Shown here: positions 29,339-36,350 of the stretch, one piece after another
Position numbering within the stretch: position 1 is the first letter of the stretch
Layout: each line of letters opens with the position of its first letter
Source: Chromobacterium piscinae
GTDB taxonomy: Bacteria > Pseudomonadota > Gammaproteobacteria > Burkholderiales > Chromobacteriaceae
DNA length: 42,707 nt
Direction: 5' to 3'
Assembly: GCF_021129175.1 (NCBI RefSeq)
Contig: NZ_JAJOHV010000033.1
Coordinates: forward strand, 1 to 42,707
The notes under the pieces: model-generated
Database searches by the model: none
Seen by the model: the letters and a program-made list of their open reading frames with translations, nothing else
What the model was told of the DNA's origin: nothing
Position numbers and translations under genes: made by a program

Positions 29339-31204
29339 ATGCAGGATCACAATAAACAGGCGATGGCGGGCCTGACCCTGGCCGCGCTCGGCGTAGTTTA
29401 CGGCGACATCGGCACCAGCCCGCTGTACACCTTGCGCGAGTGTTTCGTCAGCCAGAACCTCCCCACCACGCCCGACAACATCTTCGGCATTCTGTCGCTT
29501 ATCTTCTGGTCGCTGATATTCGTGGTGTCGATCAAATACGTGGCCTTCGTGCTGCGCGCCGACAACCGCGGCGAAGGGGGCATCATGGCGCTGATGGCGC
29601 TGGCCCGCCATTACACCACCCATGCCGCGCGCTGGAAGATCGTGATGCTGGGCCTGTTCGGCGCCGCGCTGTTCTACGGCGACGCCATCATCACCCCTGC
29701 GGTGTCGGTGCTGTCCGCTGCAGAAGGCATGGAAGTCCTCTCCCCCGGCATGGAAGCCTATGTGCTGCCGATGGCGGTCGGCGTGCTGGTGGGCCTGTTC
29801 CTGCTGCAGCGCCACGGCACCGCCAGGGTCGGCCTGATGTTCGGCCCGGTGATGATGATCTGGTTCGCCATCCTCGGCATCCTCGGCCTGCACCAGATCA
29901 TCCAGCAGCCGGCGGTGCTGCAGGCGCTGAACCCGTGGCACGCAGTCACCTTCGTCAGCCAGAACGGCTTCCACGCCTTCCTGACGCTGGGCTCGGTGGT
30001 GCTGGCGCTGACCGGCGCCGAAGCGCTGTACGCCGACATGGGCCACTTCGGCAAAACGCCGATCCGCCGCGCCTGGTTCAGCTTGGTGCTGCCCGGCCTG
30101 GGGCTGAACTATTTCGGCCAGGGCGCGCTGCTGATGAGCAACCCGGCCGCGATCAAGAACCCCTTCTTCCTGCTGGCACCGGACTGGGCGCTGCTGCCGA
30201 TGATCGCGCTGGCGACGCTGGCCACGGTGATCGCGTCGCAGGCGGTGATCTCCGGCGCCTACTCGCTGACGCGCCAGGCCATCCTGCTGGGCTACTGCCC
30301 GCGCCTGGAGGTGAACCACACCTCGGAGAAGGAGATCGGCCAGATCTACATGCCCTTCATCAACTGGGCGCTGCTGGTCGCGGTGCTGGTGGTGGTGCTC
30401 ACCTTCAAGACCTCGTCCAGCCTGGCCGCCGCCTACGGCATCGCCGTCACCGGCACCATGCTGATCACCACCGCGCTGTTCTTCGTCGTCGCGCGCGTGA
30501 ACTGGCGCTGGCCGCTGCCGCTGGCCCTGGGCATCACCCTGCTGTTCGGCGTGATCGACACCGCCTTCTTCGCCGCCAACATCCATAAAGTGGCCGACGG
30601 CGGCTGGCTGCCGCTGGTGATGGGCATGGTCATCTTCACGCTGATGAGCACCTGGAAACAGGGCCGCGACATCCTGTTCAAGCGCCTGCGCGAACAGGCG
30701 CTGCCGCTGGACGACTTCATCCACAATCTGGAAGCCTATCCGCCGGCGCGGGTGGAAGGCACCGCGGTATTCCTGACCAGTACCCTGCACGGCGTGCCGC
30801 ACGCGCTGCTGCACAATCTGAAGCACAACAAAGTGCTGCATGAGCGCGTCGTGCTGATGACGGTGCGCACCGAGGACGTGCCCTATGTGGCGGAGGAGGA
30901 GCGGCTGGAAATCGTGCAGATGTCGGCGTCGTTCTGGCGGGTGATGGCCCGCTACGGCTTCAAGGAAGACCCGAACGTGCTGGAAGTGCTGGATATGTGC
31001 GCCAAGGAAGGCTTCCAGATGGAGCTGATGGACACCTCGTTCTTCCTGTCGCGCGAAACCATCGTCTCCACCGACCATCCCGGCATGGCCCGCTGGCGCG
31101 AGAAGGTATTCGTGTGGATGAGCAAGAACGCGTTGCGCGCCACCGACTTCTTCCAAGTGCCCACCAACCGCGTGGTGGAGCTAGGCGCCCAGGTCGAGCT
31201 GTAG
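29339..31204 (+). CDS. kup: Low-affinity potassium transporter Kup
   Basis: A 621-residue K+/H+ symporter of the KUP/HAK/KT family. It begins with the signature LAALGVVYGDIGTSPLYTLRE and has about twelve membrane helices to residue 430, including FYGDAIITPAVSVLSAAEG, FLTLGSVVLALTGAEALYADMGHFG and the GIAVTGTMLITT segment. A soluble C-terminal part of about 190 residues follows. The start has GGAAG 5 nt upstream. It stands alone and ends at a very strong terminator shared with the convergent gene. Confidence 0.96.
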   Translation: MQDHNKQAMAGLTLAALGVVYGDIGTSPLYTLRECFVSQNLPTTPDNIFGILSLIFWSLIFVVSIKYVAFVLRADNRGEGGIMALMALARHYTTHAARWKIVMLGLFGAALFYGDAIITPAVSVLSAAEGMEVLSPGMEAYVLPMAVGVLVGLFLLQRHGTARVGLMFGPVMMIWFAILGILGLHQIIQQPAVLQALNPWHAVTFVSQNGFHAFLTLGSVVLALTGAEALYADMGHFGKTPIRRAWFSLVLPGLGLNYFGQGALLMSNPAAIKNPFFLLAPDWALLPMIALATLATVIASQAVISGAYSLTRQAILLGYCPRLEVNHTSEKEIGQIYMPFINWALLVAVLVVVLTFKTSSSLAAAYGIAVTGTMLITTALFFVVARVNWRWPLPLALGITLLFGVIDTAFFAANIHKVADGGWLPLVMGMVIFTLMSTWKQGRDILFKRLREQALPLDDFIHNLEAYPPARVEGTAVFLTSTLHGVPHALLHNLKHNKVLHERVVLMTVRTEDVPYVAEEERLEIVQMSASFWRVMARYGFKEDPNVLEVLDMCAKEGFQMELMDTSFFLSRETIVSTDHPGMARWREKVFVWMSKNALRATDFFQVPTNRVVELGAQVEL

Positions 31205-31221
31205 CGCCGGTTTCGCCCAAG

Positions 31222-31252
31222 AAAAAAGCGCGCCTCGACGGCGCGCTTTTTT
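31222..31252. terminator. Bidirectional terminator between kup and the HD-family gene
   Basis: A 13-bp perfect stem (A6-GCGCGCC and GGCGCGC-T6) with a 5-nt loop. It gives a T-run on each strand, 17 nt after kup and 13 nt after the convergent minus-strand gene. Confidence 0.93.
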
Positions 31253-31265
31253 ATTTCCCGGCGCG

Positions 31266-31832
31266 TCAGCGCGCCGCAGGCTGTCGCAGCCGGATCTGCG
31301 CCGATGACGACCAGGCCCGGCACTGCTCGTACATCGCGCAAAAACTGGCCAGCCCCTGGGCGATGGTCATCGGCCAGATGCGCTCCGGCAGCGGCTGCAC
31401 CCCAGTCAGGATGGGCCAGTCGATATTGTCCGGCGGCATCAGGTCGCGCCGCTCGGTCGCCAGCAGGCGGGCGTCGGCCATCGCCAGCTCTGCCCGATCG
31501 TCGCCGGACAGGTGCAGGCCGAAGCGCGCCTCCACCGCCGCGGTCAGCCGGTGCTGCAGCGGCGGGCGGTCCTGAATGTCGGGCCTCACCACCTCGCCGG
31601 CGTACGCCTTGGCCGCGCCATACAGCAAGCCCGCCAACTTCAGCCGCGGCGGCAGCAGATCCGCCATCCTGACCGCATGCTCGGCCTCGCTGTAAAACTG
31701 GCGGCAGGCACCGCCGAAGCGGCAGACATGCGCCAGATGATGGGCGATGTCGGCGATGTCGATGTCGTCCGGCTGGGGATCCAGCACGTTCAGATAGCGT
31801 CCCGACACCGTTTGTATGAATGCGCCTCTCAT
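31266..31832 (-). CDS. HD-superfamily phosphohydrolase-like protein lacking the HD motif
   Basis: A 188-residue protein related to small HD phosphohydrolases of the YfbR/phage type, as shown by IQTVSGRYLNVLDPQPDDIDIADIAHHL, CRFGGACRQFYSEAEHAVRMADLL and the late LLATERRDLMPP. In that family the metal site includes an LLHDAxEAYxGD segment. Here the matching stretch is GLLYGAAKAYAGE: the His-Asp pair is Tyr71-Gly72, the next Glu is Lys75 and the Asp is Glu80; the first His (52) is kept. The enzyme is therefore probably inactive or altered. The ATG at 31832 follows GGGAGAGGCG; the frame to 31970 has no support. Confidence 0.85.
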   Translation of the reverse strand: MRGAFIQTVSGRYLNVLDPQPDDIDIADIAHHLAHVCRFGGACRQFYSEAEHAVRMADLLPPRLKLAGLLYGAAKAYAGEVVRPDIQDRPPLQHRLTAAVEARFGLHLSGDDRAELAMADARLLATERRDLMPPDNIDWPILTGVQPLPERIWPMTIAQGLASFCAMYEQCRAWSSSAQIRLRQPAAR

Positions 31833-32284
31833 CGCCTCTCCCTCCCGCGGCGGCCGATGCCGCCGCGCAACCATCCCGCCGTCACTGATTTCATCCCTGT
31901 CATCCCTGCGCCCAGCAATTATTTCGACTTGATCATTGATCAAAACAATTTCAACAGCATAAAATCTCAAAGACTAAAATGGCCCCGCCTGGACGGACTA
32001 AATAATCCTGGCATTTTCAAACCAAAATGGTTCCTACTCCAAGGCAAAAAAGGAACGATTTCATTCTACGGAAAACCCTGGAAAAACTTTCTAGAACTGT
32101 CCAGATTTATCTCTTTCAAAACAACAACTAATAATCCAGATATGACATAGATCATAAGAACTCAAATCTAGCACAGCCACCTGGTCTTTTTCCAGAAAAA
32201 CGTTAAACGCCTTTTGGTATTTATTCTTGAATAAATATATCAAAACTTAAAATATTTGAATAAGGACCAATTGGAAAATCCGAA
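31833..32284. other. AT-rich control region upstream of the four-gene operon
   Basis: A 452-nt gap, from about 31920 onward much more AT-rich than the rest of the window. It contains three dyads: TTGATC-ATT-GATCAA (31929-31943), TATGA-CATAGA-TCATA (32141-32156, CRP/FNR-like in layout) and the perfect 20-bp dyad at 32218. No credible gene was found; an open frame through it is discussed among the rejected items. Confidence 0.5.
32218..32237. promoter_or_regulatory. Perfect 20-bp palindrome, candidate operator of the HTH-VUT operon
   Basis: TATTTATTC-TT-GAATAAATA is a perfect dyad 48 bp upstream of the HTH regulator start. It overlaps a possible -35 (TTGAAT, 32228-32233) with AATATT 17 nt later. 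Position and symmetry suggest autoregulation by the first gene product. Confidence 0.5.
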
Positions 32285-32812
32285 ATGCAGGCAAAGAATC
32301 TTTTCAAACCCCACTCTGTATTGCATGAATTCAAGCTCAACGCGCTGCGCAGAATCCGGGACCGCAAACTATCGATCAGCGAACTGGCGCGCATTACCGG
32401 TATCAAGCAGTCCACGCTGCACCGCGGCCTGTTTGAAGACCGTGAGCTGACATTCAGCAACGCCCACGCGATTGGACATGCGCTGGACATCAATCTGGGT
32501 GGCGGCGAGCCCCCCAGGATGGCGCCGGTCATCACCGGTTTCGACCAATTGAGCGGGTTGAGAGAAGGCAGACAGCCCCTCTGGGACGAATTCATCCTGC
32601 TGGAGCCCGCGCTGGACGACACGATGCTGGCCATAGACCAGGCACTGTTCCGCCAACGCGTATTCCCCCGCCGCGCGGTGGTGCTGTTGCAAACCGACCA
32701 CCCCAAGCACGGCCGCCTGGCGTATCCCGACCACGGCGCGCTCAGCCTGGAAGACAACGGCCATGCCGCCATCGGCGTGGTAGCGGGCATTCTTTTCCGG
32801 AAAAACGCATGA
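32285..32812 (+). CDS. Helix-turn-helix regulator with possible S24/LexA-like C-terminal domain
   Basis: A 175-residue protein. Residues about 15-70 form a Cro/C1-type HTH: LNALRRIRDRKLSISELARITGIKQSTLHRGLFE, with SISELARITGIKQSTLHR as the HTH itself. The C-terminal part (about 85-175) has strands such as EFILLEPALDDTMLAIDQAL, RRAVVLLQTD and HAAIGVVAGILFR, which resemble the fold of LexA/CI repressor C-termini. The Ser/Lys dyad is not visible, so cleavage is unlikely. It is the first of four overlapping genes. The product probably controls this operon through the 20-bp dyad upstream. The start codon has only a weak GGA-type site. Confidence 0.75.
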   Translation: MQAKNLFKPHSVLHEFKLNALRRIRDRKLSISELARITGIKQSTLHRGLFEDRELTFSNAHAIGHALDINLGGGEPPRMAPVITGFDQLSGLREGRQPLWDEFILLEPALDDTMLAIDQALFRQRVFPRRAVVLLQTDHPKHGRLAYPDHGALSLEDNGHAAIGVVAGILFRKNA

Positions 32813-33552
32813 AACTGCTCAAAAACTTGGCTGGCCGCATGCTGGCCTGCATTGATCCCATCGTGATCCTGTCCTTCCTGATCCTGATTTCGGCGATCGC
32901 CTCCAATCTAACCTCATACAAGGTGGTGCAGGTGTTCGGCACCGAGGCCAGCCTGGGCACCTTCACCATGCCCATCATCCTGATGCTGCTCAACCCGATC
33001 GCCGAGGTCTACGGCAAGAAGCGCTCCAACCAGATCCTGTTCGCCACCTGTCTGGCCGAGATCCTGTTCGCCGTCTCCTTCACCGCGCTCAGCCAATCTC
33101 AGCGCGACTGCGGCCTACTGCCGCTGGCCGACCGCGGACATTGCGAGGCGCTGAACCAGAGCTATGTGCTGATCAGCGAACACATCGTGCGCGGCTCGAT
33201 CTCGTTCGCGATCGGTTGCTTGATCGGCAGCCAGTTCAACACGCGCTTCCTGCTGTACCTGAAGAACCTGTGGTCGAGCCGGCTGTACTTCATCCGCGAC
33301 ATTTTTTCGTCGGTGGTAGGCGAGGTGGTGTACACCGCCATCTGCTTCATGATCGCCTTCTACGGCGTCTTCCCCTTCGCCACCATCCTGAAGATCTTCG
33401 CCTTCAGCCTGATGTTCAAGTTCTCGTCCACCGTGGTCCTGTCCTGGATCTCGCAATACATCGTGCTGCTGCTGTACCGCTACCAAGCCTGGAGCGAGGG
33501 CGTTTCCGGCGGCCGCAAAGTCAAATTTTCTTCCCGGTATCTGCAAGTATGA
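32809..33552 (+). CDS. VUT-family (queuosine-precursor-type) membrane transporter
   Basis: A 247-residue membrane protein with about six helices. The family pattern is visible in ILISAIASNLTSYKVVQVFG, the LLNPIAEVYGKKRSNQ motif after helix 2 (matching the 'D/N-x-x-x-E-x-YG' block of YhhQ/QueT-like proteins) and YFIRDIFSSVVGEVVYT. VUT proteins import deazaguanine precursors of queuosine or related vitamins; the substrate here is not known. An extra cysteine-containing loop (SQRDCGLLPLADRGHCEALNQ) is unusual. It overlaps the HTH gene and the next gene by 4 nt each (ATGA). Confidence 0.8.
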   Translation: MKLLKNLAGRMLACIDPIVILSFLILISAIASNLTSYKVVQVFGTEASLGTFTMPIILMLLNPIAEVYGKKRSNQILFATCLAEILFAVSFTALSQSQRDCGLLPLADRGHCEALNQSYVLISEHIVRGSISFAIGCLIGSQFNTRFLLYLKNLWSSRLYFIRDIFSSVVGEVVYTAICFMIAFYGVFPFATILKIFAFSLMFKFSSTVVLSWISQYIVLLLYRYQAWSEGVSGGRKVKFSSRYLQV

Positions 33553-34874
33553 ACAAAATCAGGCTGCACTCCGTCGAGGCGCCGTCCGTAAGCGCCCGCC
33601 CGCCGCTGTTCGCGCTGCGCTGCAACTACGACTACAGCGGCAAATACGCGCTGCACAGCCGCGCCATCGAACGCGCCGCGCTCAGCGCGCTGTTCTTCGC
33701 CGACCGCGTTCTGCTCGTCCCGCGCAGCCGCAACGGCGTCCGCATCGCCGAGGCGCTGGCACCGCGGCTTGGCGATGCGGACGCCGCCGCGCCCAGCGCG
33801 CTCCGGCTGCCTCTCGACCCCGCCGCGCCGCTGGCATCCCGGCTGCAGCGGCTGCTGGACATCCCCGCCTGCTTCGACGCGGATCCGCGCTTCGGCCTGT
33901 ACGGCTTTTTCTGCTATGAATTGATCCACGCCAAGCTGGGCCTGGACGCCGGCCTGCTGGGCGTGTTCCACCTGCCGGAACGGCTGAGCGAAAACGGCGC
34001 CGCCATCGACCTGCTGCAGGACCCGGCCGCTGCCGGCGGCGAAACCTGGCCGCTGGCGCTGGGCCCGCTGCTGGACGCGGAGGATTTCGCCGCCGGCAGC
34101 GGCCTGCCCTACGAGCGGATGTACGCCATCGCCAGCCGGCGCATCGCCGACGGCGGCCTGCGCTCGGTCAATCCCAGCTATGCGATCCAGCGTCCCTGCC
34201 CGCGCGACGGCTACCAGATCCACCAGGACCTGCTGGCGCGCAATCCCGCGCCTTACAACCTGTATTTCGACGGCGGCGACTTCCAGCTGGCCGGCTCCTC
34301 GCCGGCGATGTTCCTGCGCCTGCGCGACGGCCGGCTCTCCACCAGCCCCATTTGCGGCACCGTCGCGCGCGGCCGCGGCGAGGCCGAAGATCAAGCGCAA
34401 GTGGAAAAGCTGCTGGCGTCGGACAAGGACAGGTTCGAGCTGGAGGAATGCGTGAAGGCCGACATACAGGCCAAAAAAGCAAGCTGCGAGGACATCCGCA
34501 TCGACGTCGAACGGGAAGTGGAGCGCTTCGCCAATGTATTCCACACCTCGGCCAGCGTCAGCGCGCGGCTGAAGCCGGGCAAGACCCTTGCCGACGCGAT
34601 CTGCGACCACCTATGGCCGGCCACCGTCATCGGCACGCCGGTGGACTCGGCTGCTCGATTGATCGCGGAACATGAAAGCCGCCGCTGGTACGCCGGCGCC
34701 TTCGGCTATCTGTGCGCCGACGAAGCGGAGCTCGGCACCATGATCCGCACCGCGCTGCTGACGGACGGAAAAGCCACCACCCGGGTCGGCAGCACGCTGA
34801 GCGCGCGCTCCAGCCCGCAGTTGGAGCGCAGCGAACTGGAAGCCAAAGCCTCTCTGATCCTGGAGGTGTTGTGA
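33549..34874 (+). CDS. Divergent chorismate-binding enzyme (TrpE/PabB/PhzE superfamily), no glutaminase domain
   Basis: A 441-residue protein of the chorismate-utilising fold. The C-terminal domain shows NPAPYNLYFDGGDFQLAGSS, TSPICGTVARGRGE (residues 266-279), VFHTSASVSARLKPGK with the catalytic-type His332, and PATVIGTPVDSAARLIAEHE...WYAGAFGY. The last block is closest in style to PhzE and TrpE(G)-type enzymes. Several usual residues differ: PI(A/K)GT reads PICGT, GSSPE reads GSSPA, and the EH...D.RND block reads EL...D.IQA. There is no glutamine amidotransferase gene nearby. A product cannot be named. It is coupled to its neighbours by 4-nt overlaps. Confidence 0.8.
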   Translation: MNKIRLHSVEAPSVSARPPLFALRCNYDYSGKYALHSRAIERAALSALFFADRVLLVPRSRNGVRIAEALAPRLGDADAAAPSALRLPLDPAAPLASRLQRLLDIPACFDADPRFGLYGFFCYELIHAKLGLDAGLLGVFHLPERLSENGAAIDLLQDPAAAGGETWPLALGPLLDAEDFAAGSGLPYERMYAIASRRIADGGLRSVNPSYAIQRPCPRDGYQIHQDLLARNPAPYNLYFDGGDFQLAGSSPAMFLRLRDGRLSTSPICGTVARGRGEAEDQAQVEKLLASDKDRFELEECVKADIQAKKASCEDIRIDVEREVERFANVFHTSASVSARLKPGKTLADAICDHLWPATVIGTPVDSAARLIAEHESRRWYAGAFGYLCADEAELGTMIRTALLTDGKATTRVGSTLSARSSPQLERSELEAKASLILEVL

Positions 34875-35326
34875 GCGCCCTCACCATAGAGGACATCGAC
34901 GCCGACGCGATCACGATACGACTGGTCAACACCGCTAAGACTTACCTTGTGCCGCTGGACCGGGTGATCCGCTTGCAATGCCTGCTGGGGCTGCCGCGGG
35001 ATGAAATCCTGTTAGCCGGCGTGCTGGCCGGCAAGGTGGCGCGCAAGCGCCCCGCCCTCTTGGCGCAGTACGACTTCTCCGACGTCGCCGTCTCCGGCGA
35101 CTTCCGGCCGCAACATGTGGTGTTCGAACGCAGCGTCGGTTTCCTCGCCGACGGCGACGCCCGGGTGGACCTGCCGTTCCGCGAGTTGCTGGGCAATCTG
35201 GACGCCATCTCGCGGCTGAGCGACGAGACGGCGTTCTATCTCGGTTTCAGCTACGCGTTGTTCGCGCTGCCGGGCGAGGATCTGGCCTTCGACGACCACC
35301 CCCGCCCCTACCTGACGCTGAAATAG
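34871..35326 (+). CDS. Protein of unknown function, last gene of the four-gene operon
   Basis: A 151-residue soluble protein I do not recognise. It starts at GTG 34871 (GGAGG 4 nt upstream), overlapping the previous stop codon in GTGA. The sequence opens SALTIEDIDADAITIRLVNT, looks alpha/beta, has no signal peptide or membrane helix, and is acidic at both ends with a conserved-looking HVVFERSVGFLADGDARVDL middle. The tight overlap says that its dose is tied to the chorismate-binding enzyme, so a partner or accessory enzyme is plausible. No catalytic motif is visible. Confidence 0.75.
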   Translation: MSALTIEDIDADAITIRLVNTAKTYLVPLDRVIRLQCLLGLPRDEILLAGVLAGKVARKRPALLAQYDFSDVAVSGDFRPQHVVFERSVGFLADGDARVDLPFRELLGNLDAISRLSDETAFYLGFSYALFALPGEDLAFDDHPRPYLTLK

Positions 35327-35330
35327 CGGC

Positions 35331-36350
35331 TCAGAACCCCAGCCCGCTGTCGTCCTGGGCGCGGCGCCAGTCGAACCAAGGGCCAGGGTCTGTCTTGCGC
35401 CCGGGCGCGATATGCTCGTGGCCGGCGATGGCGGACAGCGGCAACGCGCGCCGCAGCTCGCGCGACAACGCCGCCAGCGTGCGGTACTGCGCCTCGCTGA
35501 AAGGCTCGAAATCGCAACCTTCCATCTCCACGCCGATGGAGAAGTCATTGCACTTCTCGCGCCCCCTCCAGCTGGAAACGCCGGCATGCCAGGCGCGCTT
35601 GCCCACCGGCACGAACTGCAGCAGGCGGCCATCGCGCCGGATGAAGAAATGCGATGACACCCGCAGCTGGTGCACGCCTTGGTAATAGGGGTGCTCATCC
35701 GGGTCCAACCGGTTGGAAAACAGCTGCTCGACGCCGGCGCCGCCGTAGCGGTAAGGCGGCAGGCTGATATTGTGGATCACCAACAGCTCTGGCGCGCAGC
35801 CTGGGCTGCGTTCGTCGCAGTTCGGCGACGGCAGCTGCTGGGCGCCCTGCATCCAGCCGTCCGCGCCCAGCGCCAGCGCCGGCGCCGCGGACGGCCGGTA
35901 AACCAGCCGCCACAGCGCCAGCCCGTCGGTGGTGTTCCAACGCTGCTCCAGCACGAAACCGGCCTTGTGGTACAGCGCGATGGCCGCCTGGTTGACCTCG
36001 GCGGTATCCACGCTGACGCGGTCTTCGCCCTGCAGCGCGCGGTTCAGCAACCGATAACCCCAGCCCTGCTGCAAATGCGCCGGATCCACCACCGTGCGTT
36101 CGATGTGCATGCCCCCATCGGAGCCCCGGGACGTCACCAACAAGCCGCGCAGCTCATCCCCTTCGAAGGCCGCCAGAATCCGGTCCCGGCAAGAATGCAA
36201 CGCCGCCAGGTCCGTCCACATCACCGGCAGGGCTGGATAATTCAGCCACTCCACCTCCAGCCTGTGCGCGTCCAGCTGCAGCCGCAGGGCACGCCGCGCC
36301 AGCGCCGCGTCGCCGCGGGCCAATTCCGTCACTTCGAACGGCAACTCCAT
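35331..36350 (-). CDS. GNAT acetyltransferase-AmpD amidase fusion
   Basis: A 339-residue two-domain protein. Residues 1-155 are GNAT-like (IERTVVDPAHLQQGWGYRLLNRAL, then SVDTAEVNQAAIALYHKAGFVLEQRW). Residues 163-339 are a complete AmpD, the cytosolic 1,6-anhydro-N-acetylmuramyl-L-alanine amidase of cell-wall recycling: GWMQGAQQLPSPNCDERSPG, VIHNISLPPYRYGG, SSHFFIRRDG, GVEMEGCDF and AGHEHIAPGRKTDPGPWFDW. Zinc ligands His193, His311 and Asp321 and the catalytic Lys319 are all present. No start codon lies just before the AmpD part, so the fusion is translated as one protein. AmpD alone is usually about 180-190 residues. The acetyl acceptor is unknown. Confidence 0.9.
   Translation of the reverse strand: MELPFEVTELARGDAALARRALRLQLDAHRLEVEWLNYPALPVMWTDLAALHSCRDRILAAFEGDELRGLLVTSRGSDGGMHIERTVVDPAHLQQGWGYRLLNRALQGEDRVSVDTAEVNQAAIALYHKAGFVLEQRWNTTDGLALWRLVYRPSAAPALALGADGWMQGAQQLPSPNCDERSPGCAPELLVIHNISLPPYRYGGAGVEQLFSNRLDPDEHPYYQGVHQLRVSSHFFIRRDGRLLQFVPVGKRAWHAGVSSWRGREKCNDFSIGVEMEGCDFEPFSEAQYRTLAALSRELRRALPLSAIAGHEHIAPGRKTDPGPWFDWRRAQDDSGLGF

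What the first reader, a model, noticed from the sequence alone, without database searches (positions are those of the whole stretch)
32285..35326. Unfamiliar four-gene operon: HTH regulator, VUT transporter, divergent chorismate-binding enzyme, unknown protein
All four genes overlap by 4 nt (ATGA, ATGA, GTGA), so they are probably made as one unit. A VUT-family transporter is normally linked to queuosine precursors, and a TrpE/PabB/PhzE-type enzyme normally works with a glutaminase subunit; I know of no pathway joining them. The fourth protein has no family I recognise. The operon is preceded by a 450-nt AT-rich region unlike the rest of the window, which hints at acquisition or a specialised promoter. 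An aromatic, chorismate-derived signal or cofactor with its own uptake is one reading.
Basis: partly seen in the sequence, partly recalled or inferred. Interest (0 to 1): 0.8.

Follow-up and report, generated by a model that had tools for sequence, protein, structure and literature searches.

The report
Chromobacterium operon with altered chorismate enzyme
Some Chromobacterium species carry a tightly packed four-gene unit whose central protein resembles the enzymes that start tryptophan, folate and siderophore production but has lost the residues that do that chemistry while keeping those that bind the substrate, so it probably does something different.

Summary
The operon is real: HTH, VUT, CHOR and ORF4 overlap by 4 nt at all three joins in the window and in 8 further Chromobacterium genomes. 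HTH, VUT and ORF4 are in the same 9 of 61 family genomes, all one genus; CHOR is beside them in all 9. In 8 of 10 congeners without them kup and the amidase gene adjoin. Outside the genus only distant relatives of CHOR and VUT turned up, none convincing of ORF4.

CHOR is not a plain TrpE or PabB: the genome has those, an isochorismate synthase and a canonical queuosine-precursor transporter elsewhere. In 9/9 copies the MST-family general acid (Glu in 47/47 relatives) is Ala and the general-base position is Ser, while the Mg2+ and substrate ligands stay. I infer a repurposed chorismate-type binding protein (sensor or half-reaction enzyme) tied to a transporter and a regulator; no ligand is shown. 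ORF4 has no known family or fold. Two operon types conflict with the flanking-gene tree, suggesting exchange as a block. New variant of a known kind.

The parts
32285..32812 (+). HTH regulator, 175 aa: Cro/C1-type N-terminal domain plus about 100 aa C-terminal domain without a known family
   Evidence: HTH_26 24.7 bits, cut-off 22; no PDB sequence match better than E 0.02, none over the C-terminal domain alone; 9 of 61 family genomes; C-terminal part diverges more than the DNA-binding part
32809..33552 (+). VUT/QPTR-superfamily membrane transporter, 247 aa, divergent subfamily
   Evidence: Vut_1 74 bits; TIGR00697 55.6 bits, cut-off 50.95
33549..34874 (+). CHOR: MST-fold chorismate-binding protein, 441 aa, general acid and general base replaced
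   Evidence: (Chorismate_bind 193.5 bits)
34164..34166 (+). Ser206 codon, at the general-base position (Lys205 of MbtI; Gln or Glu in TrpE types)
34305..34307 (+). Ala253 codon, at the general-acid position (Glu252 of MbtI; Glu in 47 of 47 relatives)
   Evidence: role from passages of PMC8008425
34353..34355 (+). Cys269 codon in PICGT (Ala 31, Ser 15, Lys 1 of 47 relatives)
34871..35326 (+). ORF4, 151 aa, GTG start here (ATG in three relatives), no known family
32141..32156 (.). Palindrome TATGA-N6-TCATA, candidate operator in the AT-rich intergenic region
   Evidence: exact in 7 of 9 genomes, one mismatch in the other 2; 2 places in the 5.0-Mb genome; reversed control pattern 1. Alone it is not rare: a two-mismatch form was found once in the window and in 17 of 100 shuffles
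31833..32284 (.). AT-rich divergent intergenic region, 452 nt, 40.7% GC
31266..31832 (-). Divergent neighbour: phage-type dNMP-phosphatase (HD) relative without the HD pair; loosely linked to the operon
   Evidence: no Pfam match; phrog_318 6.2e-43

Best explanation
A genus-restricted cassette that senses or processes a small aromatic (chorismate-type) metabolite. (1) Shown: the four genes overlap and sit together in all nine genomes that have any of HTH, VUT or ORF4 in this form. (2) Inferred: the HTH protein controls the divergent promoter region through the palindrome TATGA-N6-TCATA and is itself controlled through its fast-changing C-terminal domain. (3) Shown by sequence: CHOR keeps the Mg2+ and substrate ligands of the MST family but lacks its general base and general acid, so by known chemistry it should not carry out the shared first step, in which a nucleophile is added at C2 while the C4 hydroxyl leaves. 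(4) Inferred: it binds chorismate or a relative (isochorismate, aminodeoxyisochorismate) either as a ligand sensor or scaffold, or as an enzyme that runs only a nucleophile-free step such as pyruvate elimination. (5) Inferred: ORF4, encoded directly after CHOR where fused relatives carry their glutaminase domain, is its partner, and VUT moves the ligand or product across the membrane. My split of step 4: binding or sensing about 0.3, half-reaction about 0.2.
For: Catalytic map against 47 relatives: position 253 Glu 47/47 versus Ala 9/9; position 206 Gln/Glu/Lys 45/47 versus Ser 9/9; SGxPK lysine 47/47 versus 0/9. Kept 9/9: E297, E426, E429 (Mg2+), T359, Y381, R400, K433, and H332. Roles of Lys205, Glu252, Glu297, Glu431, Glu434, Thr361, Tyr385, Arg405 and Lys438 in MbtI, and of the base/acid pair in plant ICS1, are from passages of PMC8008425 and PMC11444293. 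No glutaminase gene in the operon; a GATase domain is present in 6 of 6 long relatives scanned (of 15). Purifying selection on all genes (dN/dS of CHOR 0.23-0.36, VUT 0.05-0.12 in four close pairs); the 35 pocket and motif positions listed are invariant while the two operon types differ at about 33% of positions in the catalytic half. Same 9 of 61 genomes for HTH, VUT and ORF4. TrpE, PabB, isochorismate synthase and a canonical transporter elsewhere in the genome.
Against: No ligand, product or expression data. Lost residues can be replaced from elsewhere (R205, E300 and C269 are also invariant), so activity is not excluded. ORF4 has no fold assignment (mean pLDDT 54), so partnership is inferred from gene order alone. 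The regulator's target and the transporter's direction and substrate are unknown; the palindrome by itself is not rare by chance. CHOR has the highest dN/dS of the five genes in three of four pairs, which could mean relaxed constraint as well as new function.
Confidence: 0.5

Rival explanations
1. CHOR is still a synthase, with catalysis taken over by other invariant residues (for example Cys269, placed where PabB has its recalled nucleophilic Lys274, or Arg205/Glu300), giving an unusual chorismate-derived product that ORF4 finishes and VUT exports.
For: Cys269, Arg205, Ser206 and Glu300 are invariant in 9 of 9; the pocket is otherwise complete; the operon looks like a minimal biosynthesis-transport unit.
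Against: The general acid of every one of 47 relatives is missing and no replacement can be pointed to without a structure.
Confidence: 0.22
2. Queuosine-precursor salvage: VUT imports preQ0 or preQ1 and the other genes serve that.
For: VUT passes TIGR00697 (55.6 bits, cut-off 50.95).
Against: A far better QPTR lies elsewhere in the genome (203 bits); no preQ1 riboswitch or other Rfam family reaches its threshold in 31200-35500 (16 sub-threshold matches); no queuosine gene in the operon; the VUT subfamily has no match at E <= 1e-12 in 298 other genomes.
Confidence: 0.05
3. A competition or defence cassette: the fast-changing HTH C-terminal part, CHOR and ORF4 form exchangeable specificity types, and the altered-enzyme parts (CHOR and the HD neighbour) act as decoys or ligand traps.
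For: Two types, A (6 genomes) and B (3), conflict with the flanking-gene tree (AU p 8e-39; flank tree); island present or absent at one site; neighbour 31266-31832 is a phage-type HD protein without the HD pair.
Against: No match for any of the five proteins in PADLOC at E <= 0.01; the HD neighbour also occurs without the operon (G012); recombination among ordinary metabolic genes would look alike.
Confidence: 0.08
4. Genes in decay: CHOR is a former TrpE losing function, kept by chance near a transporter.
For: Long stem in the tree (3.8 changes per column) and higher dN/dS than most neighbours.
Against: Open frames and overlaps kept in 9 of 9, all 35 positions listed invariant, dN/dS well below 1.
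Confidence: 0.05

Closest known systems
Fused TrpE-TrpG anthranilate synthase (TrpE-clade3, TIGR01815/PRK13566)
   Same: Closest relatives of CHOR by score and tree; Mg2+ and substrate ligands and the HT motif shared
   Different: No glutaminase domain (441 aa against 713-846 aa for the 15 long relatives; GATase found in 6 of 6 scanned), general acid Glu to Ala, base position Glu to Ser, PISGT to PICGT, SGxPK lysine lost
PabB / aminodeoxychorismate synthase component I
   Same: Same fold family
   Different: General acid, SGxPK lysine and base position changed; Tyr210, which passages of PMC7617670 report as contacting the glutaminase thioester, falls at Arg205 if the 5-residue offset holds
MbtI/Irp9 salicylate synthase and isochorismate synthases
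   Same: Mg2+ glutamates and substrate-contacting Thr, Tyr, Arg and Lys present
   Different: Lys205 and Glu252 replaced by Ser206 and Ala253
QPTR (YhhQ, COG1738, Vut_1)
   Same: Membrane family; passes Vut_1 and narrowly TIGR00697
   Different: Divergent subfamily, close relatives found only in Chromobacterium here; no queuosine gene in the operon; canonical copy elsewhere in the genome

Membership tests
MST (chorismate-utilizing) family, fold level | Chorismate_bind domain | tested here: met
   PF00425 193.5 bits, cut-off 27
MST (chorismate-utilizing) family, fold level | Mg2+ ligands and substrate ligands (MbtI E297, E431, E434, T361, Y385, R405, K438) | tested here: met
   All retained in 9 of 9
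Active MST synthase (TrpE, PabB, ICS, salicylate synthase) | General acid Glu in SPE | tested here: not met
   Ala in 9 of 9; Glu in 47 of 47 relatives
Active MST synthase (TrpE, PabB, ICS, salicylate synthase) | General base or equivalent residue (Lys, Gln or Glu) | tested here: not met
   Ser in 9 of 9; Lys/Gln/Glu in 45 of 47 (one Leu, one gap)
Anthranilate synthase / aminodeoxychorismate synthase | Glutaminase partner or domain | tested here: inconclusive
   None fused or in the operon; ORF4 shows no profile match to the fused glutaminase region (hhalign probability 0.1%). A partner from another locus was not excluded
Anthranilate synthase / aminodeoxychorismate synthase | Passes curated family models | tested here: not met
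   Best 188 bits against cut-off 645; the genome's own TrpE and PabB pass theirs
QPTR queuosine-precursor transporter | TIGR00697 cut-off | tested here: met
   55.6 bits, cut-off 50.95; far below the canonical copy at 203 bits
QPTR queuosine-precursor transporter | Transports preQ0, preQ1 or queuine | not testable with these tools
   Needs an uptake assay
XRE-type regulator | Cro/C1 HTH domain | tested here: met
   PF13443 24.7 bits, cut-off 22
HD phosphohydrolase (neighbour 31266-31832) | HD metal-binding pair | tested here: not met
   YG or HG in 9 of 9; HD present in both phage relatives fetched and in all four paralogous loci away from the kup site

The most novel reading that the evidence does not exclude
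A chorismate-family protein that has given up synthase chemistry and become the ligand receptor (or a lyase-only half-enzyme) of a regulated transport operon, with ORF4, a protein of unknown fold, in the glutaminase's place as partner, and with two exchangeable specificity types in one genus.
Probability: 0.3. Interest if true: 0.75.

Novelty: new variant of a known kind. Interest (0 to 1): 0.6.

Why it matters
MST enzymes share one first step, and the glutamate that protonates the leaving hydroxyl is present in all 47 relatives compared here. A family kept under selection without it, in a compact operon with its own transporter and regulator, would be either a chorismate sensor or a half-enzyme; in both cases it would show how a central metabolic branch-point enzyme was turned to another use. 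ORF4 and the VUT subfamily are also targets with no assigned function.

Tried and rejected
Queuosine salvage: canonical transporter elsewhere and no riboswitch at threshold. 3,6-dihydroxy-1,2-benzisoxazole cluster (reported from Chromobacterium; section 6 and passages of PMC11481567 seen): the genes described there are an oxygenase pair and ring-closure/N-O genes, not these. Known defence systems: no PADLOC match (the rival was set from 0.10 to 0.08 for this). Mobile-element signs: no tRNA in the window; plasmid records hold no ORF4 (E <= 0.01) or VUT (E <= 1e-5) relative; CHOR matches 357 plasmid records, all below 60% identity, one of them (a Rhizobium, 28%) over 80% of its length, and 17 phage records, none over 80%; viral contigs none. 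HD neighbour as a strict operon member: rejected because G012 has it next to kup without the operon, and distant homologs occur in other genomes. ORF4 as a relic of the glutaminase, of the HTH C-terminal domain or of the other genes: no profile match. ORF4 fold: model weak (mean pLDDT 54.1, pTM 0.55) and no Foldseek match at E <= 0.001 in PDB or BFVD. Loss of the D..RND loop, which the first alignment suggested, is not claimed, because the larger alignment pairs the residues otherwise. VUT residue changes not used: the comparison set was picked by a motif search and left out the own canonical copy. My notes put the palindrome as exact in 8 of 9 genomes; on re-reading it is 7 of 9.

Literature: searches. 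In the listings and abstract beginnings shown, and in the passages read (PMC8008425, PMC11444293, PMC11130926, PMC7617670, PMC11481567), I saw no description of this operon or of an MST pseudoenzyme; only open-licence PMC text is held, and no paper was read whole.
Full report
OBSERVATION. Reading the homologous loci in eight other genomes gave the same order, relative strand and 4-nt overlap at every junction. The family labels are right but weak: VUT is barely above the queuosine-transporter cut-off, and CHOR is below the cut-off of each of the 25 NCBIfam models shown of 26 matched.

WHERE IT OCCURS. In 61 genomes of the same family, ORF4 is found in 9, HTH in the same 9, and VUT in the same 9 plus one weak hit of 26 bits in a tenth, G024. 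All 9 belong to one genus (9 of its 19 genomes); CHOR is present in all nine. CHOR was not searched separately through the whole genomes of the other ten; it is absent from their site stretches. The genome-contig scan with the CHOR alignment returned six loci from 115 candidate stretches: Chromobacterium vaccinii, C. sinusclupearum, C. amazonense, C. subtsugae, C. sphagni, and a Barnesiella protein at 27% identity. That scan uses short degenerate patterns and records near the window's genome may be left out. A profile search of 369 class genomes for ORF4 gave, besides the own genome, three partial matches of 15-16 bits (E 0.009-0.02) that I take as noise. The VUT profile had no match at E <= 1e-12 in 298 other phylum genomes; distant VUT-family members are common (13 of 56 class genomes). 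CHOR gave only distant matches in 398 other order genomes (144 at E <= 1e-28, best 129 bits against 979 for itself) and in 397 other phylum genomes (33 at E <= 1e-40, best 205 bits against 878).

THE SITE. In the nine genomes the order is kup, divergent HD-like gene, HTH-VUT-CHOR-ORF4, amidase/acetyltransferase gene, hemerythrin-like gene, transaldolase. The amidase gene is in all 19 genomes. Of the ten genomes without the operon, eight have the kup and amidase matches about 70-220 nt apart; in one (L089) kup was not found on the stretch read, and in one (L090, G012) the contig begins beside the amidase gene. In G012 kup lies on another contig with the HD-like gene but no operon genes on the 12 kb read. 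On a tree of amidase, hemerythrin and kup DNA, presence needs three changes, for example one gain and two losses.

TWO TYPES. The operon falls into type A (six genomes) and type B (three). Holding together the five genomes that the flanking genes unite (100/99) is rejected for the whole operon (AU p 8e-39) and for CHOR+ORF4+HTH (2e-48), weakly for VUT alone (0.03). L050 has a long branch and I had seen both trees before naming the group, so the p-values are optimistic. Exchange of the operon as a block is the simplest reading. Between types VUT is 84% identical on average, the HTH DNA-binding part 65%, its C-terminal part 45%, the CHOR N-terminal part 51%, the CHOR catalytic part 67%, ORF4 65%.

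CHOR. The tree of 56 proteins places the nine copies as one clade (100/100) beside the 15 relatives over 650 aa (97/92), on a stem of 3.8 changes per column; the program warns that long branches meet there, so the place is not certain. The 15 were grouped by length; the six of them scanned all carry a GATase domain. The 47 relatives compared are 29 TrpE-type proteins (28 from the same order plus the genome's own), the 15 long ones, the genome's PabB, one salicylate synthase and the Barnesiella protein; many are close kin and not independent. Position 253: Glu in 47/47, Ala in 9/9. Position 206: Gln 29, Glu 15, Lys 1, Leu 1, gap 1, against Ser 9/9. Position 269: Ala 31, Ser 15, Lys 1, against Cys 9/9. 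Position 365: Lys 47/47, against Val, Thr or Ala. Kept in all 56: E297, Y381, R400, E426, E429, K433; T359 and H332 in 55 of 56. Passages of PMC8008425 give Lys205 as likely activating water and Glu252 as protonating the leaving hydroxyl in MbtI, with Mg2+ at Glu297 and Glu434 and ligand contacts at Thr361, Tyr385, Arg405 and Lys438; a Pseudonocardia salicylate synthase carries the numbering over. PMC11444293 gives the same kind of base/acid pair in plant ICS1. Hence the ligand site is whole and the two residues of the shared first step are gone. That E. coli PabB has Lys274 and Glu258 at these places is recalled and fits the 5-residue offset.

THE REST OF THE CELL. The same genome has three other chorismate-family genes. 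They pass the models for anthranilate synthase component I (560 bits, cut-off 517.7), aminodeoxychorismate synthase component I (630, cut-off 514) and isochorismate synthase (301, cut-off 224.75). It also has a canonical QPTR (203 bits).

SELECTION. In four close pairs dN/dS is 0.23-0.36 for CHOR, 0.04-0.29 for ORF4, 0.05-0.12 for VUT, 0.07-0.18 for HTH and 0.11-0.19 for the HD neighbour (simple Nei-Gojobori). All are constrained; CHOR is highest in three of the four pairs and ORF4 in one.

CONTROL REGION. The intergenic region holds a conserved block across the nine genomes, including TATGA-N6-TCATA at 32141-32156, exact in 7 of 9 and with one mismatch in 2. The pattern occurs at two places in the 5.0-Mb genome, the reversed control at one, and a looser form turns up in 17 of 100 shuffles of the window, so the case rests on conservation, not on rarity. 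No Rfam family reaches its threshold. The two sigma-70-like matches found lie at 31936-31980, against 0.8 expected. The HTH protein as binder is inference.

ORF4. No family, no PDB sequence match better than E 0.036, a weak model mixing helices and strands and no fold match. Its role is open.

MECHANISM AND WEIGHT. I hold it likely that CHOR does not run the normal synthase reaction, and commit at 0.5 to a repurposed chorismate-type binding or half-reaction protein working with ORF4, VUT and HTH. Nothing here shows a ligand.

Noticed in passing
window 31266-31832, minus strand: Phage-type dNMP-phosphatase (HD) relative that has lost the HD pair (LYGAAKAY or LHGAAKAY for LHDAAEAY) in 9 of 9 genomes, and in G012 (L159), with dN/dS 0.11-0.19; homologs with the HD pair lie elsewhere in Chromobacterium genomes (L160-L163).
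   Followed up: partly
window 35331-36350, minus strand: One 339-aa protein joins an acetyltransferase domain to an AmpD-like amidase domain; a match is present in all 19 Chromobacterium genomes searched.
   Followed up: partly
window and L043-L050: Two operon types whose distribution conflicts with the flanking-gene tree.
   Followed up: yes
L159 (G012): Beside kup and the HD-like gene lie open frames other than the operon, and the amidase gene is on another contig: apparently a rearranged version of the site.
   Followed up: no
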